Below, one piece after another: positions 25,949 through 39,531 of a DNA stretch of 45,742 bases. The DNA is from Roseicella frigidaeris (lineage in GTDB: Bacteria > Pseudomonadota > Alphaproteobacteria > Acetobacterales > Acetobacteraceae). The position numbers and the translations under genes were made by a program. The notes under the pieces are model-generated. The model made no database searches and was not told where the DNA came from. It saw only the letters and a program-made list of their open reading frames with translations. Each line of letters begins with the position of its first letter. Position 1 is the first letter of the stretch. The DNA is taken from NCBI RefSeq assembly GCF_003258945.1, contig NZ_QLIX01000030.1, positions 1-45,742 on the forward strand, given 5' to 3'.

Positions 25949-26020
25949 TATAGTACGATGCGGAGTACGGCGGCGGTCCTGATGCGGCCCGCCGCCTGCC
26001 CGTCCTTCTCGGCGGCTGCG

Positions 26021-26218
26021 ATGGGCAAGACGGATCAGAAGAGACCGAGCAACCCGGCCATGGCCGAGACGGATGAGGAGGGCGAGGCGGTGGATAACGC
26101 CTTCGACCTGTGGCTCAGGCGTGGGCTGCACCAACTCTACGACACCGTTGCGAAGGAACCGATCCCGGAGGATCTGCTCCGGATGATCGAGGACGACCGC
26201 AAGTCGCAGCAGCAGTGA
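26021..26218 (+). CDS. nepR: NepR anti-sigma factor
   Basis: The C-terminal half reads AFDLWLRRGLHQLYDTVAKE, then PIPEDLLRMIEDDRK, the two NepR helices that clamp EcfG and are captured by phosphorylated PhyR. The upstream part is variable and acidic, as usual. ATG at 26021 (MGKTDQK) is preferred; the frame also extends to an ATG at 25958 and has one at 26060. It lies about 70 bases after the second ECF sigma gene on the same strand, so it is probably cotranscribed. Confidence 0.85.
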   Translation: MGKTDQKRPSNPAMAETDEEGEAVDNAFDLWLRRGLHQLYDTVAKEPIPEDLLRMIEDDRKSQQQ

Positions 26219-26388
26219 TCGGCCGGGCCAGGCGGCGCGCTGCGCCCGCCCGGCCGGGCCTCGGTCCAGCCTGATATCCAGGCCGAGAGGATGGGGCATG
26301 CCGCATGGCCTTGGGCCGCCGCGCGGCGTGATGAGTCGCGTCTGGCGTGACCCCTGCCGCAGGCCCCCTCCCCTCGGCGCCGGCGCGT

Positions 26389-26414
26389 TTTGGCCCTCTG
26401 GTTTGGCCCTCTGG
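26389..26414. repeat. 13-bp tandem duplication
   Basis: Tttggccctctgg occurs twice, back to back (26389-26401 and 26402-26414), in the gap after nepR. It is just before an AT-rich stretch. No function is evident. Confidence 0.7.
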
Positions 26415-26452
26415 CGGGTCCGCTCCCGCCGGGACCGGATCATGAGCATTCT

Positions 26453-26480
26453 TTGATATTTGAGCGTTTATCGATATTTT
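26453..26480 (+). promoter_or_regulatory. Candidate promoter before the 26.5 kb gene
   Basis: Ttgata (26453-26458) and tatttt (26475-26480) are 16 bases apart in the only AT-rich stretch of this region, 12 bases before the ATG at 26493. The hexamers are fair matches to a housekeeping promoter. If so, the 5' leader is very short. Confidence 0.4.
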
Positions 26481-26492
26481 AAAGATCCAACA

Positions 26493-26822
26493 ATGAATTC
26501 TAGAAAGGTGAGCGAAGCTGCCAGAAAGGCGGCCGCGGAGACGGACTGGAAGGTGCGGTATTCTCCAGGACGGAGGCGACCTTTGGACAAGCCTGAGCTG
26601 CTCGGCCTGACCGGCATTACGCTGGACCAGTTGTTTTCCAAGATCGCGGACACGGAAAGGCTGCTGACGGCGCTGAAGCACGAGCTCGTGCGTCGGTGCC
26701 GGCCTGATCTGGAAGATCCGGTCCTGCGCCGGCGCCGCGAACTCTCGCGCACCGTCCCGCGGAAGATCCGCCCCGCCGGCACCCGGCTCCCTCCCTTCCA
26801 GCATCCGGCCTGGCGCGACTAG
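26493..26822 (+). CDS. Hypothetical basic protein
   Basis: A 109-residue protein starting MNSRKVSEAARKAAAETDWK and containing GLTGITLDQLFSKIADTERL, then LLTALKHELVRRC. The C-terminal third is Arg-rich. No family was recognised. An alternative TTG start at 26460 is in frame. Its stop codon TAG (26820-26822) is the first TAG of a repeat array that begins here, so the present end of the protein may have been set by the repeat. Confidence 0.4.
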   Translation: MNSRKVSEAARKAAAETDWKVRYSPGRRRPLDKPELLGLTGITLDQLFSKIADTERLLTALKHELVRRCRPDLEDPVLRRRRELSRTVPRKIRPAGTRLPPFQHPAWRD

Positions 26823-26925
26823 AGCAGATCCCGTTCGAGTGGAAACACTCTAACGGGTGAAGATGCTGCAAAAACAAGAGGCTAGAGCATTTGTCGTGAA
26901 CCGGAGTGAACGGAAAATGCTCTAG
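26819..26925. repeat. Mosaic palindromic repeat array R1 (one Y unit, one Z unit)
   Basis: Two palindromes. The Y unit (26819-26870) has ctagagcagatcccg, a stem cccgttcgagtg/cactctaacggg with a gaaa loop, then gaagatgct. The Z unit (26882-26925) has ctagagcattt and aaatgctctag as its arms. A linker rich in A (gcaaaaacaa) joins them. The same mosaic recurs at 32.0, 37.7 and 38.6 kb. It resembles the REP/BIME-like palindromes of alphaproteobacterial intergenic regions. The left end supplies the stop codon of the gene to its left. Confidence 0.9.
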
Positions 26926-27163
26926 ACCGCGATCCACTCACGCCGGTTCGCGGACCCTGGTCCAGCGCGGCGTTTGGTCGCGTGCGTCACGCCTTCGGCG
27001 CGCCCCGCCGCAGGGCGTGATCGCTCCTCGGCTGGCCGGGGACCTGGCGCGTCGCGGCCGGGACGGACCTCCCACATGATCCCCGGGGACGGTCGCCACT
27101 GACGGAACTCGCCAGGCAAGCCACGGCACGCTGCCCTCCGCGGCCCCCATTCCGGAGACGGCC

Positions 27164-28069
27164 ATGCCGGTCCTGCTGAGCTTCGTGCCCGATGCCTGGG
27201 GTCCAACGGTCCGGATCGAAGGCGGCGCGGTCGCGCTGACCCGAGCCGGGCCGAACGGGATCCGGTTCACGGCGCCGGCGCATCTGGTCCTGGTCATGGT
27301 CCTGCCGCAGCCCTGCCGGGCGGCTGCGCCGAACGGCACCCAGCCGACGACAATCCAGGCGCCCGCCGGATCGCTGGAGCTCATGCCGGCGGACGCCGCC
27401 TGCTTCGCCCGCTGGATCGCGCCCAAGGAATGCCTGCTGCTGGCCTTCGACCAGGACGGGCTCGCCCAACGCGCCGCCCTCGAGGGCGGGAGGGGCGATT
27501 TCGAATTTCACCCCCCGAAGCTCGGCACGATCGACGAGAGGGCCAGGGTCATCGCGGGCCTGATCAGGGACGAGATGCTGCAGGGCCCCCGCCGGAACGA
27601 GGCCTATCTCACGGCCCTGCTGACAGCCCTCAAGATCCATCTCCTGCGGGAGCATCCCGCCCTGGTGGGGCAGGGCCGCGCGCCGAGCCGCGGCGGGCTT
27701 CCCCCCAACACCTGGCGCAGGGTGGTGGAGCATATCCAGGCCAACCTCTCGGCGAACCTGTCCATCCCGCGCCTGGCCGAGATGCTGGGCGTGTCGCCCA
27801 GCCACTTCCTGCGCGCCTTTCGCCAGAGCTGCGGCCAGTCGCCGCATCGCTACGTCCTCGAGAAGCGCCTGCTGCTGGTCGAGCACCTGGCCAGGACGAC
27901 CGACATGCCCCTGGCCCAGGTCGCCGAGGCGGCCGGCTTCTCCAGCCCCAGCCACATGACGGCGGCGCTGCGGCGGTGGAAGGGCGTCACCCCGGGCCAG
28001 CTGCGCCGCGAGGCGCGGCGGCAGGACCCGGGCGGCCAGGGCGACGCCCGATCGGGGGGCCTCCCCTGA
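27164..28069 (+). CDS. AraC-family transcriptional regulator
   Basis: The 301-residue protein has a variable N-terminal sensing part with cupin-like strands (APAHLVLVMVLPQ, SLELMPADAACF) and a C-terminal AraC DNA-binding domain: WRRVVEHIQANLSANLSIPR, AEMLGVSPSHFLRAFRQSCG and PHRYVLEKRLLLVEHLARTT, then AQVAEAAGFSSPSHMTAALR. The last motif is the second helix-turn-helix. It is preceded by 238 bases (26926-27163) with no gene, and the target is not evident. The next gene, leuA, is convergent with it. Confidence 0.88.
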   Translation: MPVLLSFVPDAWGPTVRIEGGAVALTRAGPNGIRFTAPAHLVLVMVLPQPCRAAAPNGTQPTTIQAPAGSLELMPADAACFARWIAPKECLLLAFDQDGLAQRAALEGGRGDFEFHPPKLGTIDERARVIAGLIRDEMLQGPRRNEAYLTALLTALKIHLLREHPALVGQGRAPSRGGLPPNTWRRVVEHIQANLSANLSIPRLAEMLGVSPSHFLRAFRQSCGQSPHRYVLEKRLLLVEHLARTTDMPLAQVAEAAGFSSPSHMTAALRRWKGVTPGQLRREARRQDPGGQGDARSGGLP

Positions 28070-28100
28070 TCGGGAAGGTGCCCTGGCCGGGGCCCTCGGC

Positions 28101-29696
28101 TCAGGCCGAGAGCGCGGTCGCCTGCATCTCCGGCGGCGCGGTGCGCTCGCGCTTGGCCAGCAGCTTGTTCAGCGCATGCACATAGGCACGGGCCGAGGCG
28201 ACGATGGTGTCGGTGTCCGAGCCCTGCCCGTCCACCAGCTTGCCGTGCTCCTCGAGCCGCACCGTCACCCGCGCCTGCGCGTCGGTGCCGCCGGTCACGC
28301 TCTGCACCGCATAGAGCTTCAGCCCGACCTCATGCGGGAAGGCCTGGCGGATGGCGATGAAGGTGGCGTCCACCGCGCCGTCGCCGCTCGCCATGCCGTC
28401 CTGCCGCTGGCCGTCCACCTCCAGCGTCACCGAGGCCATGGGCTTGGTGCCGAGGCCGGTCGAGACGTTCAGCCCGGTCAGCTTCACCCGGTCGTTGCCG
28501 CGCACCACCTCGTCATCGACCAGCGCCGCGACGTCCTCGTCATAGACCACCTTCTTGCGGTCGGCGATGTCCTTGAAGCGGCGGAAGGCGTCGTTCAGCG
28601 CGTTGTCGCCGAGCTCGCCATAGCCCAGCGCACGCAGCTTGTCGCGGAAGGCGGCGCGGCCGGAATGCTTGCCCAGCACCAGCGAGTTGGTGGACCAGCC
28701 GACGCTCTCCGGCGTCATGATCTCGTAGGTGGAGGCGTCCTTCAGCACGCCGTCCTGGTGGATGCCGCTCTCATGCGCGAAGGCGTTGCGGCCGACGATC
28801 GCCTTGTTCGGCTGCACGTCGAAGCCGGTGATGGTCGCCAGCAGCCGGCTGGTCTTCAGGATGCGCTCGGAGGTGATGCCGGTGCGGAAGGGCAGCGCGT
28901 CGTGCCGCGTCCGCAGCGCCATCGCCACCTCCTCGAGGCTGGCATTGCCCGCCCGCTCGCCGATGCCGTTGATGGTGCTCTCGATCTGCCGCACCCCGGC
29001 CTGGATGGCGGCGACGGTGTTCGCCACCGCCATGCCGAGGTCGTTGTGGTTGTGCGCCGAGAGCACGACCTTCTCGATGCCCGGCACCCGGTTGCGCAGG
29101 TCGCGGAAGATCCGCGCCATGTCCTCGGGCAGCGAGTAGCCGACGGTGTCGGGGATGTTGATGGTGGTGGCGCCGGCCTTGATCGCGGCCTCGACGCAGC
29201 GGCAGAGGAAGTCGGGATCGGTGCGGCTGCCATCCTCGGCCGACCATTCCACGTCGTCCGAATGGCTGCGGCCGAGCGTCACGCTGCGGGTGATCGCCTC
29301 CAGCACCTCCTCGCGGCTCATGCGCAGCTTGACGCGCATGTGCAGGTCGCTGGTCGCCAGCACGATATGCACGCGCTTGCGGGCGGCGGGCTTCAGCGCC
29401 TCGCCCGAGGCGTTGATGTCGGCGGCGTTGGCGCGCGACAGGCTGGCCACCACCGGGCCGTCCTTGGCGAATTTGCGGGCGATCGACTGCACGCTCTCGA
29501 AATCGCCGGGCGAGGCGATGGCGAAGCCGGCCTCCATGACATCGACGCCGAGCTCGGCCAGCGCCTCGGCCATGCGCAGCTTCTCCTCGAGGTTCATCGA
29601 GAAGCCGGGCGACTGCTCGCCGTCGCGCAGGGTCGTGTCGAAGAAGATGATGCGGTTGTCGTCCAGCGTGCCGAAGCTGGGATGGGTGATGGCCAT
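28101..29696 (-). CDS. leuA: 2-isopropylmalate synthase
   Basis: This 531-residue enzyme condenses acetyl-CoA with 2-ketoisovalerate, the first step of leucine biosynthesis. The TIM-barrel signature [14 protein letters not shown] is near residue 19, metal-binding HNHND in [15 protein letters not shown] is near 220, and [13 protein letters not shown] follows. A C-terminal LeuA allosteric domain ([17 protein letters not shown] onward) is complete, so feedback inhibition by leucine is expected. The start is the ATG at 29694-29696, with aagga upstream. The 445-base leader contains a possible leucine-rich leader peptide. Confidence 0.96.
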
Positions 29697-29789
29697 GGAT
29701 CGGGTCCTTCGGAGCGGTGTCGTCAGCCAGGCGGGCGCGCAGGCGGCGCCTCAGGTCCCCCTGAGCGGTGGCGGCCGGTCAGCCGCGCG

Positions 29790-29897
29790 TCACGCCCAGG
29801 GGCGGCTAAGTCGAAGAAGGAGGGCGAGGGGCAGGCGCGCGCGGCCGGCGGCGGGGATGCCGCGGAGGAGGCCAGCGATGCGCGCATGCGGTGCCAT
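29790..29897 (-). CDS. Candidate leucine-rich leader peptide upstream of leuA
   Basis: A 35-codon frame upstream of leuA on the same strand ends in [14 protein letters not shown]: six leucines in nine residues, just before its stop. Leader peptides of leuA-type attenuators use a leucine run in this way. A small cctgag/ctcagg hairpin lies between this stop and leuA, but a convincing terminator with a T-run was not found, so attenuation is unproven. The ATG has no strong ribosome site. This is an inference from codon content and position. Confidence 0.35.
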
Positions 29898-29908
29898 GGT
29901 GGCGCGCA

Positions 29909-29920
29909 CCCTAGCTAGGG
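29909..29920. promoter_or_regulatory. 12-bp perfect palindrome upstream of leuA
   Basis: Ccctagctaggg reads the same on both strands, 11 bases before the start of the candidate leader. It could be an operator for a dimeric regulator of leuA. Elsewhere in the 29921-30141 interval there are Pro/Gly-coding GC-rich repeats (ccccggctccgcgccgg and a near copy) and no gene. Confidence 0.4.
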
Positions 29921-30141
29921 CCACCCGGCCCGTCCAGCCCGGAAATGCCCGCGGCGGGCCGGGCGGCCACACATCCGGATCAGCGCCGCCCCTCGGTCCG
30001 GCCCCCGGCTCCGCGCCGGTCCAGTCCCCGGCTTCGCGCCGGGCGGGGCCTGGCGCATTGCGCCGGGCGGGCCCATCGCCTATAGGCCGCAGCTTCCCGC
30101 GGCCGGTCGGTATCGGCTGCGCCAAGCTGCACGAGCGCGCC

Positions 30142-30369
30142 ATGAAGTCCGACATCCATCCCGATTATCACGAGATCACCATCGTCATGACCGATGGGAC
30201 GACCTTCAAGACCCGGTCCTGCATGGGCAAGGAAGGCGACACGCTGCGGCTCGACATCGACCCGAAGTCGCACCCGGCCTGGACCGGCGTGCAGCGCGTG
30301 ATGGACACCGGCGGGCAGGTGGCGAAGTTCAACAGGAAGTTCGCCGGCATCGGCGCCCGGAAGAAGTAA
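30142..30369 (+). CDS. rpmE: 50S ribosomal protein L31
   Basis: The 75-residue protein begins [20 protein letters not shown], then [20 protein letters not shown] and [20 protein letters not shown]. It is the L31 family, with one Cys only, so it is the type without the CxxC zinc site. L31 bridges the subunits at the central protuberance. A strong terminator follows, so it is a single-gene unit. The start ATG fits the family length. Confidence 0.95.
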
Positions 30370-30398
30370 GCCCTTCGTCCCGCAGCGGAATTTTTCGG

Positions 30399-30434
30399 AA
30401 CGCCGCCCCCTTGAAGCCGGGGGCGGCGTTTTCC
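30399..30434 (+). terminator. Rho-independent terminator after rpmE
   Basis: Stem aacgccgccccc (30399-30410) with gggggcggcgtt (30419-30430), 12 perfect pairs, an 8-base loop and a short T-rich tail (ttcc). Confidence 0.85.
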
Positions 30435-30565
30435 ATGTCAGGGGGGCACGAGGCGCCCTGCCGGGGTCTCGGGCGTGGTTCCCGTCCTCGCGGCGCCCGC
30501 ATCGGGGCCGTTCCGGCTGGGGATCGCAGGCATTGATCGACCTTGCTTCCCAAGGAGGTTCGACT

Positions 30566-31051
30566 GTGAACACCCTCGATTTCTCTCCCCTCTTCCGCAC
30601 CGCCATCGGCTTCGACCGGCTCGCCCGCCAGCTCGAGAGCGCCCGCAGCCTCGGCGACGCGCAGGGCTACCCCCCCTACAACATCGAGAAGACCGGTGAG
30701 GACACCTATGTCCTGACCATGGCCGTCGCCGGCTTCGGCCCGGGCGACATCGATGTGGTGGCGCGGGAGAACGTGTTGACCGTCGCCGGCCGCGCCCCGC
30801 AGCCGGAGGAAGGCCGCAGCTTCCTGCATCGCGGCATCGCCGGCCGCGCCTTCGAGCGCCGCTTCGTGCTGGCCGACCACATCGTGGTCGAGGGCGCGAC
30901 GCTGGAGAACGGGCTGCTGCAGCTCGGCCTGAAGCGCGTGGTGCCGGAGGCGCTGAAGCCGCGGCAGATCCCGGTGCAGGCCGGCAAGCCGCCGGCGCAG
31001 CCGCGGATCACCACGGCCAACGAGCAGGAGGGCCAGGCCCAGGCGGCCTGA
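30566..31051 (+). CDS. Small heat shock protein (Hsp20/IbpA type)
   Basis: This 161-residue protein has the short N-terminal arm MNTLDFSPLFRTAIGFDRLA, then the alpha-crystallin domain from about residue 34: YPPYNIEKTGEDTYVLTMAV, AGFGPGDIDVVARENVLTVA, FLHRGIAGRAFERRFVLADH and LENGLLQLGLKR. The IxV-type tail lies in RQIPVQAG. It prevents aggregation of unfolded proteins in the cytosol. GTG start with aaggagg 7 bases upstream. The 5' leader is GC-rich and could form a thermosensor-like structure, but no clear ROSE element is seen. Confidence 0.93.
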   Translation: MNTLDFSPLFRTAIGFDRLARQLESARSLGDAQGYPPYNIEKTGEDTYVLTMAVAGFGPGDIDVVARENVLTVAGRAPQPEEGRSFLHRGIAGRAFERRFVLADHIVVEGATLENGLLQLGLKRVVPEALKPRQIPVQAGKPPAQPRITTANEQEGQAQAA

Positions 31052-31081
31052 CCGTCCGGCGAGGTTCGGCCTCGGACGAGG

Positions 31082-31109
31082 GCCGGCGGGGTTTCCCCGC
31101 CGGCTTTTT
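31082..31109 (+). terminator. Rho-independent terminator after hsp20
   Basis: Stem gccggcgggg (31082-31091) with ccccgccggc (31095-31104), a ttt loop and a ttttt tail. Confidence 0.92.
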
Positions 31110-31129
31110 CATGCCCGCCGCGCCGCCGG

Positions 31130-31148
31130 CATGACCTCGGAGGTCATG
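31130..31148. promoter_or_regulatory. 19-bp perfect inverted repeat, likely operator
   Basis: Catgacctc-g-gaggtcatg is a perfect 9-bp inverted repeat with a 1-base centre, 34 bases before the start of the XRE/MmyB regulator. Position, symmetry and length suit a binding site for that dimeric regulator or another one. Confidence 0.55.
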
Positions 31149-31182
31149 GAATCGCGGCCGCCGCCGCGGCAGGCTGCGCCGC

Positions 31183-32022
31183 ATGCACGGCCTCCAGACC
31201 GCCCCGCCCGCCCCGCCGCCGGGCCCCGCCACGGCCGGCGCCCTGCTCGCCCGCGCCCGGCGCGCCCGCCGCCGCAGCCAGCTCGACCTCGCGCTCGAGG
31301 CCGGCATCTCCACCCGGCATCTCAGCTTCGTCGAGACCGGCCGCGCGCGGCCGAGCCCGGGCCTGGTGCTGCGGCTCTGCGAGGCGCTCGGCGTGCCGCC
31401 GCGGGAGGCGGACGGGGTGCTGCTCGCCGCCGGCCACGCCCCGGCGCATCGCGAGACGCCGCTCGAGGCCCCGGCCATGGCCGAGGTGCTGGCCGCGCTG
31501 CGCTTGATCCTGGCGCGGCACGACCCGCTGCCGGCCGTCGCCTTCGATGCCGCCTGGGACATCGTCATGCTGAACGAGGCCTATGGCGGGGCGCTCGATG
31601 CGCTGCTCGCCGGCGGCGCCGAGCCGGGGCTCGGCGGGGCGGCGCCGCCGCGCCTCGCCCTGCTGCCGGCGCCGCGGCCGAACCTGCTGCGGCTGCTCTG
31701 CCACCCGGCCGGCGCCCGCCGGCTGATCGGCAATTGGCCCGAAGTGGCGCGCGCCCTGATCGACCGGGTCCAGCGCGAGGCGCGGCTGCCGAGCGCCGAT
31801 CCGGCGCGCCGGCCGCCGCTCGAGGAGGCGCTGGCGCAGCCGGGCGTCGCGTCGCTGCTCCGCCAGCGCCCCGCCGGGCCCGCCGCGCCGCTGCTGGTGC
31901 CGGTCGAGATGCGCCGGCCGGAGGGGGGCACGCAGCGCTTCCTGACCACCATCGCCACCCTCGGCACGGCGCAGGACCTGACCCTGCGGGAGCTGCGGAT
32001 CGAGACCTACCACCCGGCCTAG
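31183..32022 (+). CDS. XRE regulator with MmyB-like C-terminal domain
   Basis: The 279-residue protein has an N-terminal helix-turn-helix (LDLALEAGISTRHLSFVETG, RARPSPGLVLRLCEALGVPP), then a PAS-like MmyB ligand-binding region: VAFDAAWDIVMLNEAYGGAL, LLRLLCHPAGARRLIGNWPE and QRFLTTIATLGTAQDLTLRE. MmyB-type regulators may bind fatty-acid-like ligands. A palindrome lies just upstream. Its TAG stop is supplied by the left end of the repeat array R2, so the last residues (TYHPA) abut the repeat. Confidence 0.85.
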   Translation: MHGLQTAPPAPPPGPATAGALLARARRARRRSQLDLALEAGISTRHLSFVETGRARPSPGLVLRLCEALGVPPREADGVLLAAGHAPAHRETPLEAPAMAEVLAALRLILARHDPLPAVAFDAAWDIVMLNEAYGGALDALLAGGAEPGLGGAAPPRLALLPAPRPNLLRLLCHPAGARRLIGNWPEVARALIDRVQREARLPSADPARRPPLEEALAQPGVASLLRQRPAGPAAPLLVPVEMRRPEGGTQRFLTTIATLGTAQDLTLRELRIETYHPA

Positions 32023-32189
32023 AGCAGATCCTGTCCGGATGAACTCATCCGGACAGGTGAAGATGCTCGTAAAAACAAATACCTAGAGCAGATCCCGATC
32101 AGGTGAACTCACCTGATCGGGTGAAGATGCTCTGACAACAATAGTCTAGGGCGCTTCTCGTGAACCGGTGTTCACGAGAAGCGCCCTAG
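32019..32189. repeat. Mosaic palindromic repeat array R2 (Y, Y, Z)
   Basis: Two Y units (32019-32068 and 32083-32133) and one Z unit (32146-32189). The Y stems are cctgtccggatg/catccggacagg and cccgatcaggtg/cacctgatcggg, each 12 perfect pairs with the loop aact. The Z unit is a 20-bp perfect stem with a cggt loop, from ctagggcgcttctcg to its complement. Left end ctag gives the stop of the XRE gene; right end gives the stop of the DUF1192 gene on the other strand. Confidence 0.92.
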
Positions 32190-32377
32190 CCGCCCGGCTT
32201 GCGGAAGAAGGCGTCGGCGGCGCCGCGATGCGCCTCCTTGCGGGCGATCGCCGCCTCGGCGCGGGCGATCTCGGCCTGCAGGGTGACGATGTAGCGCCGC
32301 AGCTCCTCGATGTCCCGGCCCTCCAATACCGCCGGCGTGAAACCCGTGGTTGGGCGTGGCCGCTCCTCCTCCATCAT
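32186..32377 (-). CDS. DUF1192 family protein
   Basis: This 63-residue protein contains TPAVLEGRDIEELRRYIVTL, then QAEIARAEAAIARKEAHRGA, the DUF1192 layout: a short N-terminal segment then one long coiled helix. Members are small cytosolic proteins of unknown role in alphaproteobacteria. It is convergent with the XRE regulator across the R2 repeat, which supplies its stop codon. Confidence 0.85.
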   Translation of the reverse strand: MMEEERPRPTTGFTPAVLEGRDIEELRRYIVTLQAEIARAEAAIARKEAHRGAADAFFRKPGG

Positions 32378-32494
32378 CGCCTTTCTCCTGTGCCCTGCGG
32401 GCTTTGACCCTGTGAGGGGCCGCCTCTATATGCCAGCCGACGCCGCGTCGGGGATGCCCGGCCCTCCCCGGCTCGCCCCGAAAAGGTTCGCCTC

Positions 32495-33070
32495 ATGACC
32501 CAGCCCCTGATGCCGAAGGCCACCGCCGTGTGGCTGATCGAGAAGACGTCCCTGACCTTCGAGCAGGTCGCGGAGTTCGTCGGCATGCATCCGCTGGAGG
32601 TGCAGGCGATCGCCGATGGCGAGGTGGCGCAGGGGATCATCGGCTACGACCCGGTGCTGAACGGCCAGCTCACGCGCGAGGAGATCGCCCGCTGCGAGGC
32701 CGACCCGACCTCGCGGCTGCAGATCTCCGCCTCCTCCCTGCCGGTGCCGAAGCCGCGCGGCAAAGGCGCCCGCTACACCCCGGTCTCGAAGCGCAACGAC
32801 CGGCCGGATGCCATCGCCTGGGTGCTGCGCCACTACCCGCACCTCTCCGACCAGGCGGTCGGCAAGCTGCTCGGCACCACCAAGGAGACCATCGCCAAGG
32901 TGCGGGACCGGACGCATTGGAACAGCGCCAACATCAAGCCGCGCGACCCGGTGATCCTCGGCCTCTGCACCCAGTCCGACCTCAACGCCGCCATCGCCGC
33001 CGCCGGCGAGCGCCCGCCGGGCCTGCCAGTGCCACCGCTGCACGATGCCGAGGAGGAAAGCCTGGCCTGA
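32495..33070 (+). CDS. trcR: DUF1013 / TrcR-type cell-cycle transcriptional regulator
   Basis: The 191-residue protein reads MPKATAVWLIEKTSLTFEQV, AEFVGMHPLEVQAIADGEVA, then PTSRLQISA, KRNDRPDAIAWVLRHYPHLS and LGTTKETIAKVRDRTHWNSA. This is the whole-length DUF1013 pattern; the family is called cell cycle transcriptional regulator TrcR. It has two helix-turn-helix-like segments. Ending LCTQSDLNAAIAAAGERP is typical. It diverges from the DUF1192 gene, with about 117 bases between them. Confidence 0.88.
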   Translation: MTQPLMPKATAVWLIEKTSLTFEQVAEFVGMHPLEVQAIADGEVAQGIIGYDPVLNGQLTREEIARCEADPTSRLQISASSLPVPKPRGKGARYTPVSKRNDRPDAIAWVLRHYPHLSDQAVGKLLGTTKETIAKVRDRTHWNSANIKPRDPVILGLCTQSDLNAAIAAAGERPPGLPVPPLHDAEEESLA

Positions 33071-33122
33071 GCGGCGCCGGCCGGGCGCCTTGGGGCCGGC
33101 GGCATGCCGGGCGGCGCCCGGA

Positions 33123-33195
33123 GGTGACGGTGCCCAGGGTCATGGTGCCCAGGGTCACGGTGCCCAGGGGCCACGATACCCGGGGGTCATGCCCG
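33123..33195. repeat. 15-bp tandem repeat
   Basis: Three units, ggtgacggtgcccag, ggtcatggtgcccag and ggtcacggtgcccag, run from 33123 to 33167, followed by decayed copies to about 33195. It lies in the 33071-33291 gap after trcR, which otherwise holds no gene. The 15-base period keeps reading frame, but no supported frame covers it. Confidence 0.85.
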
Positions 33196-33291
33196 GGGGA
33201 CCCCGCGACGTCAGGCTGGCCTGGGGCTTCGGGGCCGCCGATGCGCCGCACCGGACCTGGTGCGGCGCCGGGCTCCCGCCGGGTGCGGCCC

Positions 33292-33462
33292 TCAGGCCTC
33301 CCGCCGGAGCCTCTCCATCTCTTCCTTCAGGCGGAGCTTCTCCCGTTTCATGCGGGTGAGCTCGGCCTCGTCGGGCCTCGGTCGCGCATCCTCGTCGCCG
33401 ATCTGCCGGTCAAGGACCGCATGCCGCTCCTCGAGGGAACGGAGCCTCGGCGCAACGTTCAT
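33292..33462 (-). CDS. DUF465 (YdcH-type) protein
   Basis: The 56-residue product: MNVAPRLRSLEERHAVLDRQ, then LTRMKREKLRLKEEMERLRR. It is a DUF465 coiled-coil protein with the usual KREKLRLKEE core. Role unknown. It diverges from a second DUF465 gene starting at 33560. Confidence 0.82.
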   Translation of the reverse strand: MNVAPRLRSLEERHAVLDRQIGDEDARPRPDEAELTRMKREKLRLKEEMERLRREA

Positions 33463-33559
33463 CCAGCATTCTCCCTGCGCTGCGTGACGCGCGGACGTGG
33501 CCGGCACGGCCCTGCTGTTGCGCCCGCGCGGGGGCATGGTAATGGCGGCGGGGGGCGCA

Positions 33560-33796
33560 ATGCACGCCTCCTTTCACTGCCGAGTGCCCGATCCGATGCT
33601 GGATGATCGCGAATCCCTGCTGCGCCGGCTGCACGAGATGCGGAGCGAGCATCGCGACCTCGACACCGTCATCGCCCGGCTCTCGGACAGCCTGACCGAC
33701 CAGCTCCAGGTGCAGCGGCTGAAGAAGCGCAAGCTGAAGCTGAAGGACGAGATCGCCTGGCTGGAAGGCCGGCTGCTGCCCGACATCATCGCCTGA
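33560..33796 (+). CDS. DUF465 (YdcH-type) protein, second copy
   Basis: A 78-residue product with RESLLRRLHEMRSEHRDLDT, then QVQRLKKRKLKLKDEIAWLE, again the DUF465 coiled-coil pattern. ATG at 33560 is preferred because a G-rich stretch precedes it; an ATG at 33596 is possible. The pair with the gene at 33292 is divergent and diverged in sequence. It is followed by purE after 55 bases. Confidence 0.8.
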   Translation: MHASFHCRVPDPMLDDRESLLRRLHEMRSEHRDLDTVIARLSDSLTDQLQVQRLKKRKLKLKDEIAWLEGRLLPDIIA

Positions 33797-33851
33797 TGCA
33801 TCATGATCGCCTGATGCCGGCGGCTCCGCACGGGAGAGGCCCGAGACCACC

Positions 33852-34376
33852 ATGACCCCCGAGGCACTGCCCGCCGAGGCGCCCCCGTCCGATGCGTCGG
33901 CGCCGCTGGTCGGCATCATCATGGGCAGCCGCTCCGACTGGGAGACGATGCGCCACGCCGCCGAGACGCTGGCCGCGCTCGGCGTGCCGCACGAGACCCG
34001 GGTGGTCTCCGCCCACCGCACGCCCGGCCGGCTCTATGACTATGCCCGGGCGGCGCGCGGGCGGGGCCTTCGGGTGATCATCGCCGGCGCCGGCGGCGCG
34101 GCGCACCTGCCCGGCATGGCGGCGGCGATGACGCCGCTGCCGGTGCTCGGCGTGCCGGTCGAGAGCCACGCGCTGAAGGGCATGGACAGCCTGCTCTCCA
34201 TCGTCCAGATGCCCGGTGGCATCCCGGTCGGGACGCTGGCCATCGGCCGCGCCGGGGCGATCAATGCCGGGCTGCTCGCCGCCGCCATCCTGGCGCTGGC
34301 CGATCCCGATCTCGCCGCCCGGCTGGACGCCTGGCGCGCCGCGCAGGAAGCGGGCGTGCCGGAGGCGCCGGCGTGA
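33852..34376 (+). CDS. purE: N5-carboxyaminoimidazole ribonucleotide mutase
   Basis: This 174-residue enzyme converts N5-CAIR to CAIR in purine synthesis. It has [20 protein letters not shown] at the N-terminus, [15 protein letters not shown] with the catalytic His, [19 protein letters not shown] and [18 protein letters not shown]. All are the class I PurE marks. The stop overlaps the purK GTG (GTGA), so the two are translationally coupled. Confidence 0.97.
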
Positions 34377-35512
34377 GCGACCCCTTCGCCAGCCGCTTCC
34401 CGCTGCCGCCCGGCGCCACCATCGGCATCCTCGGCGGCGGCCAGCTCGGGCGGATGTCGGCCCTCGCCGCCGCCCGGCTCGGCTATCGCTGCCACATCTA
34501 CTCGCCGGAGCCGGATGGGCCGGGCATGCAGGTGGCGGCCGCCGCGACCGTCGCGCCCTATGAGGATGCCGAGGCGCTGGCGGCCTTCGCCGACGCCGTC
34601 GACGTCGTCACCTTCGAGTTCGAGAACGTCCCGGCGGCGACCCTCGCGGCGCTCGAGCCGCTGGTGCCCTGCCGCCCCGGCGTCGCGGTGCTGCGCATCT
34701 GCCAGGACCGGCTGCAGGAGAAGGCCTTCCTCGAGCGCGCCGGCGTGCCGGTCGCGCCCTGGCGGGCGGTGCGGGACGAGGCCGACCTCGCCGCCGCCAT
34801 CGCCGCGATCGGCCTGCCGGCGGTGCTGAAGACCACCCGGCTCGGCTATGACGGCCGCGGCCAGGCGGTGCTGCGGCGGCCCGAGGACGCCGCGCCCGCC
34901 TTCGCCCGGCTGGCGCCGAAGCCGCTGATCCTCGAGGCCTTCGTGCCCTTCGCCGCCGAGCTCTCGGCGATCGCCGCCCGCACCGCCGACGGCGCCGAGG
35001 CGGTCTACGACGCGGTCGAGAATCGGCACCGCGACCATATCCTCGACCTCAGCTTCGCCCCGGCGCGGCTGCCGCCGGCGGTGGCCGAGCAGGCCCGGCG
35101 CCATGCCGCGGCGGTGGCGACGGCGCTCGGCCTGGTCGGAGTGCTGGCGCTCGAGCTCTTCCTGCTGCCGGATGGCGGGCTGCTCGGCAACGAGATCGCG
35201 CCGCGGCCGCACAATTCCGGCCACTGGACCATGGATGGCTGCGCCGCCAGCCAGTTCGAGCAGCATATCCGCGCCGTGGCCGGGCTGCCGCTCGCCAGCG
35301 CCGGGCGGCACCACGACGTCGTCATGCGCAACCTGGTCGGGCCGGAGGGAATCGCCCGCTGGCCGGCCCTGCTGCGGCAGCCGGGCGTGGTGCCGCATCT
35401 CTACGGCAAGGCCGAGGCGCGGCCGGGCCGCAAGCTCGGCCACGCCAACCGGCTGCTGCCGCTCGGCGCTCTCGCCGGACTGGCGGATGACGAGGCGCTC
35501 GACGGGCTCTGA
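34373..35512 (+). CDS. purK: N5-carboxyaminoimidazole ribonucleotide synthase
   Basis: The 379-residue ATP-grasp enzyme makes N5-CAIR from AIR, bicarbonate and ATP. It shows [56 protein letters not shown], the metal and ATP-binding [20 protein letters not shown] and [19 protein letters not shown]. Complete. It is the partner of PurE immediately upstream and starts within its stop. Confidence 0.97.
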
Positions 35513-35635
35513 GCGGAGTCGCGGCCGGCCGCCCCGCGGCGCGCCCCTCTCCCGGCCCGCCGCGCCGCCCGAGGCGGGAGCGGCGGCGCGGCGAAGGCCC
35601 GCGCCCATCGCGGCATGCACAGATGCATTCCCAGC

Positions 35636-35658
35636 AAGGCGTTTCCGATCAACGCCTT
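35636..35658. other. Hairpin in the leader before the OmpA-like gene
   Basis: Aaggcgtt and aacgcctt form an 8-bp stem with a 7-base loop. It lies in the 333-base gap between purK and the OmpA-like gene. That gap is more AT-balanced than its surroundings from 35640 to 35770 and holds no convincing gene; it likely carries the promoter and 5' leader of the OmpA-like gene. Confidence 0.4.
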
Positions 35659-35844
35659 AGTCAACTGTGATGAATTTGCCATTCCATGCTGTGGCGATCC
35701 AGCCACATTGATGCGGAAATGGTCCATCCCGTCTGCCATTGGTGGGTTCACGGTGATAGTTTCCGCTCACGCATCGTCGCGTCCGTGCTCGTCGCGGGAC
35801 CGGCAGCGTGACGGATCGCTTCTTGGGATCGAGGAGAGACAAGG

Positions 35845-36936
35845 ATGACCCTCAGGAAGGCCCTCCTGGCCGCGACGGTGCTGGCGCTGCCGGCGGTGGC
35901 GCAGGCCCAGCCGGTGTCCGGGCTTTATGTCGGCGCCGGGGTGGGCGCGAATTGGAAGTTCGACTCGGAGGGCAACTACAGCCGCTCCCGCATCTCCACG
36001 CTCGCCGTGCCGACCACGACCGTGGCCGGCCAGGGCCGGATCAATGCCGAGGTCGGCTGGGCCGCGGTCGGCAGCCTCGGCTGGGGCTTCGGCAACGGGC
36101 TGCGCGTCGAGGCCGAGGGCAACTACCGGACCAACGACATCCGCCGCTTCAAGGTGACGGGCTCGCCGAGCATCCCGGGCGGCGGCTACTACGACAGCTT
36201 CGGCCCGATGGTGAACGTCCTCTACGACTTCCACATCGGCGGCCCGATCGTCCCCTATGTCGGCGTCGGCGCCGGCTATGTCTGGAACGAGGTCCGCAAG
36301 GGCAACCGCTTCGGCTTCGCGGGCACCCAGACCGAGGGCGCCTTCGCCTATCAGGGCATCCTCGGCCTCGCCTATGACATGAGCCCGATGGTGCCGGGCC
36401 TCGCCTTCACCCTCGAGGGCCGCTACCTCGGCAGCCAGGCGCCGAAGTTCGACGATTCCATCCGCGTCTCGCCGACCGTCTCCCAGCACACCACCTGGAA
36501 GCCGGACAACAACAACGCCTCCGTGCTGCTCGGCGTGCGCTACGCCTTCAACGCCGCGCCGCCGCCGCCGCCGGTCGTCGCCCCGGCCGCCCCGCCGCCG
36601 GCCGTCGCCCGCACCTACCTGGTCTTCTTCGACTGGGACAAGGCGACGCTGACCGAGCGCGCGCGGCAGATCATCGCCGAGGCCGCCGGCGCCTCCCGCC
36701 GCGTCCAGACCACGCGCATCGAGGTCGCGGGCCATGCCGACCGCTCCGGCTCGGCGGCCTACAACCAGCGCCTGTCGCAGCGCCGCGCCGATGCGGTCGC
36801 GGCCGAGCTGGTGCGCCAGGGCGTGTCGCGCAGCGAGATCGCCGTCTCCGCCTATGGCGAGACGCGGCCGCTGGTCCCGACCGCGGATGGCGTGCGCGAG
36901 CCGCAGAACCGCCGCGTCGAGATCGTCCTCAAGTAA
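35845..36936 (+). CDS. OmpA-family outer membrane protein
   Basis: The 363-residue protein has a signal peptide (MTLRKALLAATVLALPAVAQ, cleaved after AQA), an eight-stranded-type beta-barrel (residues about 25-240; LYVGAGVGANWKFDSEG, GGPIVPYVGVGAGYVW, ASVLLGVRYAF), a Pro/Ala hinge (APPPPPVVAPAAPPP) and a C-terminal OmpA peptidoglycan-binding domain (FFDWDKATLTERARQIIAEA, VAGHADRSGSAAYNQRLSQR, YGETRPLVPTADGVREPQNR). It likely anchors the outer membrane to peptidoglycan. The ATG is followed by a consistent signal peptide; a ggagaga sits 6-12 bases upstream. A terminator follows. Confidence 0.93.
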   Translation: MTLRKALLAATVLALPAVAQAQPVSGLYVGAGVGANWKFDSEGNYSRSRISTLAVPTTTVAGQGRINAEVGWAAVGSLGWGFGNGLRVEAEGNYRTNDIRRFKVTGSPSIPGGGYYDSFGPMVNVLYDFHIGGPIVPYVGVGAGYVWNEVRKGNRFGFAGTQTEGAFAYQGILGLAYDMSPMVPGLAFTLEGRYLGSQAPKFDDSIRVSPTVSQHTTWKPDNNNASVLLGVRYAFNAAPPPPPVVAPAAPPPAVARTYLVFFDWDKATLTERARQIIAEAAGASRRVQTTRIEVAGHADRSGSAAYNQRLSQRRADAVAAELVRQGVSRSEIAVSAYGETRPLVPTADGVREPQNRRVEIVLK

Positions 36937-36963
36937 TCGGACGCTCCCGCACGGAGAGATGGG

Positions 36964-36989
36964 AAAGGGCGCCGCGAGGCGCCCTTTTT
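36964..36989 (+). terminator. Rho-independent terminator after the OmpA-like gene
   Basis: Stem aaagggcgcc with ggcgcccttt (10 pairs), loop gcga, and a T run. Confidence 0.92.
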
Positions 36990-37037
36990 CGTTTGCCGGC
37001 CCCCACCGGAGCGGATCAGGTTGCAGCCAGCCCGGTT

Positions 37038-37047
37038 TGTATATACA
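37038..37047. promoter_or_regulatory. Palindrome TGTATATACA in the brnTA promoter region
   Basis: The 10-bp perfect palindrome lies about 95 bases before brnT, in the one AT-rich patch of this gap. Ttgcag (37021) and tacatt (37044) form a weak promoter pair with 17-base spacing that overlaps it. BrnA-type antitoxins repress their own promoter through ribbon-helix-helix binding, so this is a candidate operator. Confidence 0.5.
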
Positions 37048-37140
37048 TTATGTGGTGCGATGGGTGAGACCCCGTAGGCGCCAAGGCATCCTGCCCGGCG
37101 CGGAGCGAGAAGGGCCGATGCCTCAGGGATAAGCCTGCCC

Positions 37141-37413
37141 ATGCTGTTCGAGTGGGACGAGCTTAAACGCCAAGGGAACATCGAGAAGCACGGCTTCGAT
37201 TTCGTGGATGCTCCCCTATTGTTTTCGAAGCCCCACATGACGGGCAGGACGCGTGACGGTCAGGACGGCGAGGAGCGCTGGATAGCAACGGGCATCCTCC
37301 GCGATCGCTACGCCACGGCCGTGTATACGATGCGTGGCGAGACCATCCGCCTGATCTCGATCCGGAGTGCGCGCCGTGACGAACGACAAAGACATCAAGC
37401 GCTATTCGGCTGA
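37141..37413 (+). CDS. brnT: BrnT-family toxin
   Basis: The 90-residue protein has FEWDELKRQGNIEKHGFDFV, DAPLLFSKPHMTGRTRDGQD, ERWIATGILRDRYATAVYTM, then RLISIRSARRDERQRHQ, the BrnT signature order. BrnT is a RelE-like ribonuclease. It overlaps the antitoxin gene by 38 bases, as in many brnTA modules. Confidence 0.93.
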   Translation: MLFEWDELKRQGNIEKHGFDFVDAPLLFSKPHMTGRTRDGQDGEERWIATGILRDRYATAVYTMRGETIRLISIRSARRDERQRHQALFG

Positions 37414-37711
37414 GGACCTGCTTGCGATGGCCGCGCGCGGCGAGAGTCGGACGAACCTCGCCCAGATCGACGCCCTGACCGAGGAGGCGCTCGAACGCGC
37501 CATCGCCGAGGATCCCGATTGGCGCGACGTGCCGCGGGACTGGCACCGCAGCGCCGAAGCAGCGATGCCGCGGCCGAAGGTGCCGGTCTCGATCCGCCTC
37601 GATGCCGATCTGGTGGATTTCTTCCGGCGGCAAGGGCGGGGCTGGCAGACCAAGGTGAATGCCGTCCTGCGCGCCTACGCCAATGCCAGGCAGGGCGGCA
37701 AATCCGGCTAG
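37376..37711 (+). CDS. brnA: BrnA-family antitoxin
   Basis: This 111-residue protein reads DIKRYSAEDLLAMAARGESR, then TDLA-like variable sequence, DVPRDWHRSAEAAMPRPKVP and VSIRLDADLVDFFRRQGRGW, then QTKVNAVLRAYANARQ. The end is the BrnA ribbon-helix-helix domain. GTG start at 37376, inside brnT; a GTG at 37367 is in frame. Its stop TAG is supplied by the beginning of repeat array R3. It should neutralise BrnT and repress the operon. Confidence 0.9.
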   Translation: MTNDKDIKRYSAEDLLAMAARGESRTNLAQIDALTEEALERAIAEDPDWRDVPRDWHRSAEAAMPRPKVPVSIRLDADLVDFFRRQGRGWQTKVNAVLRAYANARQGGKSG

Positions 37712-37979
37712 AGCATTTCCCGTTCACGCCGGTTCACGGCAAATGCTCTAGAGTGTTGTTTTGAGAGCATCTTCACCCGATCAGGTGAGTCCACCTGATC
37801 GGGATCTGCTCTGGAGCGCGATCGCCTGGGGCGGACACACCGAAAGCATGACTCCCGCGACCACACGATGGCCTGGGGCGCTTCCCGTGGACGCCGGTTC
37901 ATGGGAAGCGCCCCAGGCTCCTGTTTTCAGAGCATCTTCGTCCGTTCGAGTGTGTCCACTTGAACGGGATCCGCTCCGG
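37708..37979. repeat. Mosaic palindromic repeat array R3 (inverted orientation)
   Basis: Z unit 37708-37751 (ctagagcattt ... aaatgctctag), Y unit in reverse 37763-37814 (stem cccgatcaggtg/cacctgatcggg), a GC-rich stretch, second Z unit 37872-37917 (ctggggcgcttcccg ...), and a second reversed Y unit 37927-37979 (stem ccgttcgagtg/cacttgaacgg, one G:T pair). The array gives brnA its stop codon. Its right end also encodes the last residues of the glycosyltransferase gene on the opposite strand. Confidence 0.9.
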
Positions 37980-38556
37980 ACGCCCGGCCCAGCGCCCGCA
38001 GCCCCGCCGCGTCGTCCACGTCCCTGAGCCGCCGCAGCAGCGCGACGGGATGGCCGGCGCAATTCCGCAGCGTGTCGGCCAGCGCATGCTCGCTCGACCA
38101 GCGCACCGCGGCGAAGGGCGCGGGCGGCCGGCGCGGCCCGAACCCGACCAGCCAGTAGCCGCCATCCTCGGCCGGGCCGAACACCGCCCGCGCCCGCCCG
38201 AGCGCGCGGAAGGCCGCGGCGATGTCCGCCGGCCCGAGCTGCGGGATGTCGCAGCCGACCAGCACCGCCCGCCGGTGCCGCGCCAGCGCCCGGCCCATGC
38301 GCTGGCCGAGATCGCCCCGGCCCTGCGGCCGCATCGGCACGGCCCGGGCCAGCCCCGTCGGCCAGCGCGCCCGGTCCGGCGTCATGGCGAGCTCGCAGCG
38401 CCAGCGCCGGTCGCGCCCCAGCAGGCGGAGCAGGCGGCGGAGCTGGGCGCGGTGGAAGCGCAGCGCCGCCATGGCGCCGACCTCCCGCGCCAGCCGCCGC
38501 TTCACCGTGCCGAGCCGCGGCGCCCGGGCGAAGAGGATGACGGTATCGCCCCGCAT
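37927..38556 (-). CDS. TIGR04282-family (DUF2064) glycosyltransferase-like protein
   Basis: The 209-residue protein has the DUF2064 features: VILFARAPRLGTVKRRLARE, GRDRRWRCELAMTPD, GDLGQRMGRALA, AVLVGCDIPQLGPADIAAAF and FGPAEDGGYWLVG. This family is called arsenosugar biosynthesis glycosyltransferase in databases. It is normally next to TIGR04283, which is 214 bases upstream here, with repeat array R4 between. Its C-terminus (VQVDTLERTKML-stop) is encoded by array R3, so the native end has been replaced or extended. No ribosome site is visible before the ATG because R4 begins 9 bases away. Confidence 0.8.
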   Translation of the reverse strand: MRGDTVILFARAPRLGTVKRRLAREVGAMAALRFHRAQLRRLLRLLGRDRRWRCELAMTPDRARWPTGLARAVPMRPQGRGDLGQRMGRALARHRRAVLVGCDIPQLGPADIAAAFRALGRARAVFGPAEDGGYWLVGFGPRRPPAPFAAVRWSSEHALADTLRNCAGHPVALLRRLRDVDDAAGLRALGRASGADPVQVDTLERTKML

Positions 38557-38564
38557 CGCCGGGC

Positions 38565-38773
38565 TCAGAGCGGATCGCGTTCGGAGGGGACCATCCGAAG
38601 GCGTGACGATGCCTGCAGGACACCAGGACGGAGCATGCTGCGTGACCCCCTGTGGACGCAGCCTGCGCTAGAGCGGATCCCGTTCGGGGGGAACCACGCG
38701 AACGGGTGGAGATGCCCTGAAACCAGTAGCTAGGGCGCGTCCCATGAACCGATGTTCAGGGGACGCGCCCTAG
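38565..38773. repeat. Mosaic palindromic repeat array R4 (Y, Y, Z)
   Basis: A decayed Y unit (38565-38625, with ggatcgcgttcgg), a second Y unit (about 38668-38720, cccgttcg ... cgaacggg) and a Z unit (38730-38773, ctagggcgcgtccc ... ggacgcgccctag). Orientation is opposite to R3, so R3 and R4 flank the TIGR04282 gene as an inverted pair. The right end supplies the stop codon of the TIGR04283 gene. Confidence 0.88.
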
Positions 38774-39444
38774 CCGTAGAACCGCTGGATCAGCCGCGGC
38801 GGCAGGCCGAGATACCAGAGCGAGAGGCAGAGCAGGTTGCGGGCGGAGCGGCGGCGCCAGCCCTCCCGCCGCCAGCGCGCCGCCGAGGTCAGGGCGGCGA
38901 CCGGCAGCGCGGCCAGGCGGCGGCGGCCGATGCGGCGGACGAGGTCGACATCCTCCATCAGCGGGATCGGCCGGAAGCCGCCGAGGCTGTCGTAGAGGCG
39001 CCGCGAGAGCAGCAGCCCCTGGTCGCCATAGGGCAGGCCGAGGAGGCGGCAGCGCCAGGCGACGCGGCGTTCCAGCCGCCGCGCCGCCGGCGAGGGGTCG
39101 TCGAGGGCGAAGGCGAAATAGGCGGCGCGCCCGGCATTCTCCGGCGCCGCCATGAAGCGGTGGACGGCGGCCGACCAGCCGGGGGGCAGGCGGGTGTCGG
39201 CATGCAGGAAGAGCAGCCAGTCGCCCGGCGCGGCCCGGGCGCCGGCGGCGAGCTGCGGCCCGCGGCCGCGCGGCGCCTGAACCACCCGGCCGCCGACGGC
39301 TTCGGCGAGCGCAACGGTCCCGTCCCGGCTGCCGCCATCGGCGACGACGATCCCGGCCCCGGCCTCGGCGCAGGCGGCCAGCACCGGCCCGAGGCCGGGC
39401 GCGGCATCGAGCGTCGAGATGACGATGGTCAGCCGCTGGGGCAT
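38770..39444 (-). CDS. TIGR04283-family glycosyltransferase-like protein
   Basis: This 224-residue GT-A-fold enzyme begins TIVISTLDAAPGLGPVLAAC, with GAGIVVADGGSRDGTVALAE, GDWLLFLHADTRLPPGW and GDQGLLLSRRLYDSLGGFRP as the donor-binding and catalytic segments, then IPLMEDVDLVRRI. It matches TIGR04283, named for arsenosugar biosynthesis, and pairs with the TIGR04282 gene downstream. The start ATG lies 94 bases from the opposite-strand radical SAM gene. Stop codon supplied by R4. Confidence 0.85.
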   Translation of the reverse strand: MPQRLTIVISTLDAAPGLGPVLAACAEAGAGIVVADGGSRDGTVALAEAVGGRVVQAPRGRGPQLAAGARAAPGDWLLFLHADTRLPPGWSAAVHRFMAAPENAGRAAYFAFALDDPSPAARRLERRVAWRCRLLGLPYGDQGLLLSRRLYDSLGGFRPIPLMEDVDLVRRIGRRRLAALPVAALTSAARWRREGWRRRSARNLLCLSLWYLGLPPRLIQRFYG

Positions 39445-39531
39445 GGGGGCATTAACCGGGCGTTCCTAGGATGTTCTTGACAGCCCCCGATGCATGCCGG
39501 CAAGGTGTGAACGAACAGAAAGGGAACGCCG

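What the first reader, a model, noticed from the sequence alone, without database searches (positions are those of the whole stretch)
26819..38773. A palindromic repeat family supplies the stop codons of five genes
Four arrays (R1-R4) end in CTAG. The TAG inside is the actual stop codon of the 26.5 kb gene (26820-26822), the XRE/MmyB gene (32020-32022), brnA (37709-37711), and, on the opposite strand, the DUF1192 gene (32186-32188) and the TIGR04283 gene (38770-38772). At R2 both convergent genes get their stops from the same array. Five of the gene ends adjoining these arrays doing this suggests that the repeats insert at, or are selected at, gene 3' ends, and may double as stop and processing or termination elements. 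Coordinates are read directly; the mechanism is inference.
Basis: partly seen in the sequence, partly recalled or inferred. Interest (0 to 1): 0.78.

Follow-up and report, generated by a model that had tools for sequence, protein, structure and literature searches.

The report
Mini-transposons inserted in stop codons
Short hairpin repeats in this bacterium look like tiny transposons that land on the rare sequence CTAG, which is often a gene's stop codon, and because the repeat starts with G the stop codon is rebuilt and the protein is unchanged.

Summary
In detail: five gene ends in the window use the terminal TAG of a palindromic array as stop codon. In 845,742 bp of this 5.82-Mb genome, 23 of 47 arrays do so: 24 of 62 boundaries facing a gene 3' end, 0 of 32 facing a 5' end. 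In other Acetobacteraceae, 31 of 81 intact copies do so on the one side tested. The likely cause is target choice. The repeat is a two-hairpin, 107-bp element flanked by TA, inserting at [C]TA[G]; an IS630-family element in the same genome has similar ends. CTAG is rare here, and 30 of 55 CTAGs within 150 bp of gene 3' ends are stops, against 23 of 38 arrays. In the closest relative most of these sites lack the element; genes stop at the same codon in 19 of 23, with TAG in 13 of 22, like ordinary CTAG stops (12 of 19). So the repeat mostly preserves existing stops. R2 is an exception. Repeats that form stop codons are already published. A terminator or processing role is untested.

The parts
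26819..26925 (+). Array R1: module A 26819-26866, linker, module B 26882-26925; CTAG at both ends; left TAG (26820-26822) is the stop of ORF 26460-26822
26922..26965 (.). A third palindrome (family C, CTAGACCGCGATCC...CTGGTCCAG) that shares the CTAG at the right end of R1
   Evidence: read; like copies at C34:49695 and at the g3 stop in own genome and G003
32019..32189 (+). Array R2: A 32019-32066, A 32083-32130, B 32146-32189; left TAG stops the XRE/MmyB-type gene, right CTA stops the DUF1192 gene
37708..37814 (-). Array R3: B 37708-37751, A (minus) 37767-37814; left TAG stops brnA; right end decayed to CTGG
37873..37979 (-). Array R3b: B 37873-37916, A (minus) 37932-37979; both terminal TA decayed; the DUF2064 gene reads 53 nt into it
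38565..38612 (+). Degenerate, older A module; the related older A module is also present in G003
38668..38773 (+). Array R4: A 38668-38715, B 38730-38773; right CTA (38770-38772) stops the glycosyltransferase gene; G003 already has TAG at the same codon

Best explanation
The repeat is a non-autonomous, IS630/Tc1-mariner-type miniature transposon. The unit runs from a first G to a last C (107 bp with both CTAGs), is flanked by TA on both sides, and is made of two hairpins (A and B) with a short linker. It inserts at TA, preferring C-TA-G. In this GC-rich genome CTAG is rare and many of the CTAGs that a cell can afford to have interrupted are stop codons, so surviving copies pile up at gene ends. 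Because the element starts with G and ends with C, insertion into the TA of a TAG or TAA stop leaves TA+G = TAG on the gene side, on either strand and in either orientation, so the protein is unchanged. Overlapping convergent stops (CTAG) would both be kept. Shown: the positions, TA as the only sequence shared by the two ends, the conserved element G, the CTAG landscape, the orthologous stops, and IS630-family elements with similar ends. Inferred: that an IS630 transposase moves it, that TA is duplicated on insertion, and that purifying selection removes insertions elsewhere.
For: Where TA is intact, 28 of 29 A ends have G after it while the base before it varies (C 24, T 3, G 2); copies with left TTAG and right CTAG, or left CTAG and right CTAA, share only TA. 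G003 empty sites: g0 own gttcTAG[108]TAGaacgcc, relative gttcTAGaacacc; flanks align at 8 insertions and the relative has TAG in 7. IS630-family elements in the own genome: [C]TA GAGCGGTTTCC...GGAAACCGCTC TA[G], 1035 bp, and [C]TA GAGCCATTCCC...GGGAACGGCTC TA[A], 1040 bp. CTAG landscape: 30 stop, 25 within 150 bp of a gene 3' end, 24 further, 38 with no 3'-facing gene, 34 in genes; arrays 23, 15, 5, 4 for the first four classes. Orthologous stops look like ordinary CTAG stops (13 of 22 vs 12 of 19 TAG; own TGA genes 28 of 366 TAG). No Y1/RAYT transposase.
Against: R2: both genes end in TGA, 10 nt apart, in G003, so one TA insertion does not give the present state. TGA orthologues are commoner at element stops (13 of 27) than at all ordinary TAG stops (13 of 65; p=0.010), though not than at CTAG stops (6 of 18; p=0.37). 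In pooled named loci the share at stops exceeds the CTAG landscape (31 of 43 vs 15 of 46, p=0.0003). The repeat's ends match the IS630 ends only in part. IS630 genes do not track the repeat: G020 has at least 15 repeat matches but no DDE_3 match, while G002 and G004 have DDE_3 matches but no repeat match. The four IS630 copies tested (8 ends) do not themselves sit at stop codons.
Confidence: 0.78

Rival explanations
1. The arrays are selected at gene 3' ends because they act as stop plus transcription terminator or mRNA 3'-end protector.
For: Arrays avoid places with no 3'-facing gene (4 of 47 vs 38 of 117 CTAGs, p=0.0013). Hairpin A shows compensatory changes at 7 of 9 pairs. In the B-to-A reading, hairpin B is followed by the T-rich linker: 4 of the 5 terminator-like sites found are B hairpins, three of them the same one. 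Excess at stops in pooled loci.
Against: 5 terminator-like sites were found against 3.6 expected in shuffles. Stops use both ends (13 A, 9 B, 2 other). At g0 and g19 a hairpin that follows the stop in the relative lies beyond the element. In the own genome the CTAG landscape alone accounts for the share at stops near 3' ends (p=0.67).
Confidence: 0.1
2. The repeats are REP-type sequences (GTAG REPs) moved by a RAYT Y1 transposase, and the TAG belongs to the REP tag.
For: GTAG REP termini are reported to often provide the TAG stop codon (PMC3733652, passage). The repeats are hairpin-forming, 3'-located and found in pairs.
Against: No PF01797 match in the own genome, with the control ringing in 5 of 14 known genomes. 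Only 2 of 29 intact A ends are GTAG; 24 are CTAG. Both ends of the unit carry TA, and the variable flanking base lies outside it.
Confidence: 0.05
3. Some insertions change the stop: the element lands at or beside a TGA stop and rewrites it as TAG, so it does supply a new stop.
For: All relatives with an orthologue have TGA at g5, g9, g10, g15, g18 and g21 (3 or 4 relatives each). R1 has TGA in G003. 3 of 4 G003 element stops face TGA in the own genome.
Against: Ordinary CTAG stops face TGA about as often (6 of 18 TAG+TGA cases; p=0.37). TGA to TAA to TAG is silent. Except at R2 the far flank does not align at these loci (z 4.0 or less), so the pre-insertion sequence is unknown.
Confidence: 0.15

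Closest known systems
RUP (repeat unit of pneumococcus), proposed to be moved by IS630-Spn1
   Same: 107 bp, about 100 copies, ends like an IS630-family element in the same genome, TA target (PMC2229807 and PMC3049150, passages)
   Different: Sequence and host differ; the present unit is two separate hairpins and about half of its arrays sit in stop codons; its ends only resemble those of the local IS630 elements
IS630 transposition into TA of CTAG (Tenzen and Ohtsubo 1991)
   Same: Same preferred target; only the title was seen, in the reference list of PMC2170065; the paper is not held
   Different: That concerns an IS-borne transposon; here a unit too short to hold a transposase gene
GTAG REPs (PMC3733652, passages)
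   Same: Palindromic repeats whose termini often provide the TAG stop of flanking genes; mostly downstream of genes
   Different: Tagged GTAG at one end and linked to RAYT transposases; neither holds here
BOX of pneumococcus (PMC3049150, passage)
   Same: Encodes the stop codon of 36 annotated genes without strong evidence of truncation
   Different: Unrelated modular repeat, linked there to another IS; no target-site reason was given in the passage seen
MITEPsy1 (PMC3189936, passages)
   Same: 100-nt miniature element whose target is CTAG or YTAA
   Different: 4-nt duplication, probably IS5-type (marked 'IS5?' there)
RIME of Rhizobium and CIR of Caulobacter
   Same: Alphaproteobacterial intergenic repeats; that both have two palindromic halves of about this length is recalled; only mentions were seen
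   Different: Not compared by sequence here

Membership tests
IS630/Tc1-mariner-type MITE | Short unit with no room for a transposase gene, many copies | tested here: met
   106-108 bp unit; 83 exact 13-mers in the genome
IS630/Tc1-mariner-type MITE | TA target, duplicated on insertion | tested here: inconclusive
   TA at both ends and only TA shared; empty sites only from another species
IS630/Tc1-mariner-type MITE | Terminal inverted repeats shared with an IS630-family element | tested here: inconclusive
   GAGC next to TA is shared; by eye 8-9 of the first 11 bases match the C10 element (sequences)
IS630/Tc1-mariner-type MITE | Moves when an IS630 transposase is supplied | not testable with these tools
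   needs an assay
GTAG REP moved by RAYT | GTAG tag at one end of the hairpin | tested here: not met
   2 of 29 intact A ends are GTAG, 24 CTAG, 3 TTAG
GTAG REP moved by RAYT | RAYT (Y1 transposase) gene in the genome | tested here: not met
   0 PF01797 matches in a 98.5% complete genome; control rings in 5 of 14
RUP | RUP sequence | not tested
   no RUP sequence was fetched
Intrinsic terminator | GC-rich hairpin followed directly by a T run | tested here: inconclusive
   Only hairpin B in the B-to-A reading, with the T-rich linker a few bases after the stem; 5 sites against 3.6 expected
Rfam RNA family | Match at the gathering score | tested here: not met
   2 sub-threshold matches only, neither in an array, in window 26000-39500

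The most novel reading that the evidence does not exclude
A mini-transposon whose end bases suit its target so well that stop codons are a safe landing site from both strands, with an extra preference or survival advantage at stops beyond CTAG frequency; its conserved hairpins have been taken over as 3' UTR elements of many Acetobacteraceae genes, and some insertions rewrite TGA stops as TAG.
Probability: 0.2. Interest if true: 0.6.

Novelty: new member of a known kind. Interest (0 to 1): 0.4.

Why it matters
It gives a concrete, testable reason why short repeats so often form stop codons: in a GC-rich genome a transposon that wants CTAG finds many of its harmless targets at stops, and an element that begins with G always restores TAG. 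The same logic might bear on other repeats reported to form stops (GTAG REPs, BOX). It also warns annotators that stop codon use and 3' UTR content can be shaped by a mobile repeat, and that decay of the element's TAG could extend a protein, as the DUF2064 gene in this window suggests.

Tried and rejected
Chance placement: rejected, 24 of 62 3'-facing boundaries sit exactly at the stop. Rfam: nothing at gathering score. Plasmid collection, one distant blastn search: no match. RAYT: no Y1 transposase. IS630 partner with ends identical to the repeat: not found; 34 loci examined, 5 with clear ends. IS630 copies at stop codons: not seen at 8 ends of 4 copies. brnA: no orthologue in G001-G004; homologues in other genera end at varied places, so R3 has no empty-site test. 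g20 was dropped from the orthologue count because its G003 end lies 31 codons further on; g11 (brnA) has no orthologue. Papers: only passages were read, of PMC2573895, PMC2873474, PMC2229807, PMC2170065, PMC3189936, PMC3049150, PMC3733652 and PMC6382973. The IS630-CTAG paper and the RIME paper are not held. This repeat family was not recognised in the listings of searches (only the first rows of each were listed; the library is open-licence only).
Full report
What is there. The window is contig C24 of a 5.82-Mb genome; its GC content is 69.8%. The repeat is a composite of two hairpins. Module A (about 48 nt, CTAGAGCAGATCC...GGTGAAGATGC) is followed by a linker (such as TGAAAACAAnnnC) and module B (44 nt, for example CTAGAGCATTT...AAATGCTCTAG or CTAGGGCGCTTC...GAAGCGCCCTAG); the complete unit is 106-108 bp including both CTAGs. 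The exact 13-mer CTAGAGCAGATCC occurs 83 times in the genome and its reversed control not at all.

Observation. All five stops are at the stated coordinates. Four genes have Pfam domains. The fifth ORF (26460-26822) scores poorly as coding but has a 58%-identical homologue in G003 ending at the same codon. R3's right end and R3b lack CTAG, so 'arrays end in CTAG' is not fully general.

Scale. I took 845,742 bp of the own genome (C12 1-400 kb, C34 1-340 kb, three 20-kb pieces of C45 and the window), called genes with a codon-usage caller, and found modules with iterated nhmmer profiles. Result: 79 modules in 47 arrays, 94 boundaries. Of 62 boundaries facing a gene 3' end, 24 fall on the stop codon; 37 of the 62 still end in TAG, and all 24 are among these; of 32 facing a 5' end, none. 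23 of 47 arrays carry at least one stop. In C12 and C34 alone it is 15 of 32 (counted). One array is overlapped by more than 4 nt by a called gene. The 31 fall in 7 of the 14 genus labels used.

The ends. Where TA is intact, the base after it is G in 28 of 29 A ends and the base before it is C 24, T 3, G 2. So G belongs to the element and C to the flank. Copies with left TTAG and right CTAG, or left CTAG and right CTAA, show that TA alone is shared. The 10 decayed A ends have TG (5), CA (4) or GA (1) in place of TA. Some tandem arrays share a single CTAG between units, as expected if a new unit inserts into the TA at the end of an old one.

Empty sites. A query joining the C-termini of the 24 genes was searched in the four same-genus genomes, places fetched and compared. 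In G003, 23 of 24 genes were found. Only one (g12) has an A or B module (E up to 0.05) within 250 nt, an older one. 19 of 23 stop at the same codon. Leaving out g20, whose end is not comparable, G003 has TAG at 13 and TGA at 9 of 22. At 8 insertions the sequence beyond the element aligns to the sequence after the relative's stop (z 9.7 or more). In 7 the relative has TAG (g0, g3, g6, g12, g16, g19, g22); the exception is R2 (g9/g10). The clearest case is g0: own gttcTAG[108]TAGaacgccccacga, G003 gttcTAGaacaccccacga. At g3 both genomes have a further palindrome of another family (C) after the stop, so there the older stop itself abuts a repeat. At R4 the relative's glycosyltransferase gene already has TAG at the same codon.

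Controls. G003 C43 and part of C23 were tiled, and 483 of 641 own genes matched at 70% identity or more. Own TGA genes face TGA 327, TAG 28, TAA 11; own TAG genes without the element face TAG 51, TGA 11, TAA 7 (genes with an array within 300 bp were kept apart: 16 TGA genes and 3 TAG genes); TAG genes preceded by C face TAG 12, TGA 6, TAA 1. Element-bearing TAG stops (13 of 22 TAG) thus look like ordinary CTAG stops. Adding R1 and the reciprocal G003 cases (4 element stops in G003; own orthologue TAG 1, TGA 3), TGA orthologues are 13 of 27, more than for all ordinary TAG stops (13 of 65, p=0.010) but not significantly more than for CTAG stops (6 of 18, p=0.37).

Target landscape. Outside arrays the tiles hold 151 CTAGs: 34 in genes, 30 at stops, 25 within 150 bp of a gene 3' end, 24 further, 38 with no 3'-facing gene. 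Arrays: 23, 15, 5 and 4 for the last four classes. Near gene 3' ends, stops make up 23 of 38 for arrays and 30 of 55 for CTAGs (p=0.67); arrays avoid places without a 3' end (4 of 47 vs 38 of 117, p=0.0013). In the own genome, CTAG choice plus loss of insertions in genes and promoters is therefore enough. In the pooled named loci the share at stops is higher than the landscape (31 of 43 vs 15 of 46, p=0.0003). That control is small, counts each CTAG in both orientations and masks 120 bp around element-like words, so I treat it as a lead.

Who moves it. The own genome has five IS630-family (DDE_3) matches over the cut-off. Two show clear ends: C10, [C]TA GAGCGGTTTCC...GGAAACCGCTC TA[G], 1,035 bp; C1, [C]TA GAGCCATTCCC...GGGAACGGCTC TA[A], 1,040 bp. 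Of three clear-ended IS630 elements in relatives, two also begin GAGC or GAGT after C-TA; 29 of the 34 loci examined gave no clear ends. The repeat's ends (GAGCAGATCC, GAGCATTTCCC, GAGCATTTTCC) resemble these but are not identical. Against a simple pairing: G020 has the repeat but no DDE_3 match, and G002 and G004 have DDE_3 matches but no repeat match. No Y1 (RAYT) transposase is present. Transposition of an IS630-family element into TA with TA duplication is established for ISY100 (PMC2170065, passages); the CTAG preference of IS630 is known to me from a title cited there.

Function. In 35 distinct rows hairpin A shows compensatory changes at 7 of its 9 consensus pairs, so pairing matters, whether for RNA or for movement; no shuffled control was run on this. 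A terminator role is not supported: the T-rich tail exists only in one orientation, stops use both ends, and at g0 and g19 a hairpin that directly follows the stop in the relative lies beyond the element here.

Known or new. Repeats giving stop codons are on record: GTAG REP termini 'often provide' the TAG stop (PMC3733652), and BOX encodes the stop of 36 genes without strong evidence of truncation (PMC3049150). A 107-bp IS630-linked repeat is on record (RUP). What I did not find in the listings of the nine searches made is this family or the target-site reason for the stops.

Open. R2 needs a further event, such as prior overlap of the two stops, two insertions with loss of the 10-nt spacer, or replacement. 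No same-species strain was available, so the TA duplication and the pre-insertion codon are inferred from another species.

Noticed in passing
window 37927-38556 (-) and 37873-37979: The DUF2064 gene reads 53 nt into array R3b and ends at a TGA inside it; the array's terminal TA at that side has decayed (CCGG), which suggests that loss of an element TAG extended the protein by about 17 residues. The alignment to the G003 orthologue ends before this tail.
   Followed up: partly
window 26922-26965: A third palindrome family (CTAGACC.CGATCC...CTGGTCCAG) abuts R1; like copies stand at other stops, as at g3 in both genomes.
   Followed up: partly
window 32019-32189 (R2): In G003 both convergent genes end in TGA, 10 nt apart; how both came to end on one array is not explained by one insertion.
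   Followed up: partly
L078 (G000 C64), about 85-899: A different 812-bp stretch with inverted ends GAGCCTGTTTGAGAATGG / CCATTCTCAAACAGGCTC flanked by TA.
   Followed up: no
G001, G003, G015, G020, G025 against G002, G004: The repeat is patchy: 6 of 59 genomes searched, own included, match the 107-bp unit, and two same-genus genomes do not.
   Followed up: partly
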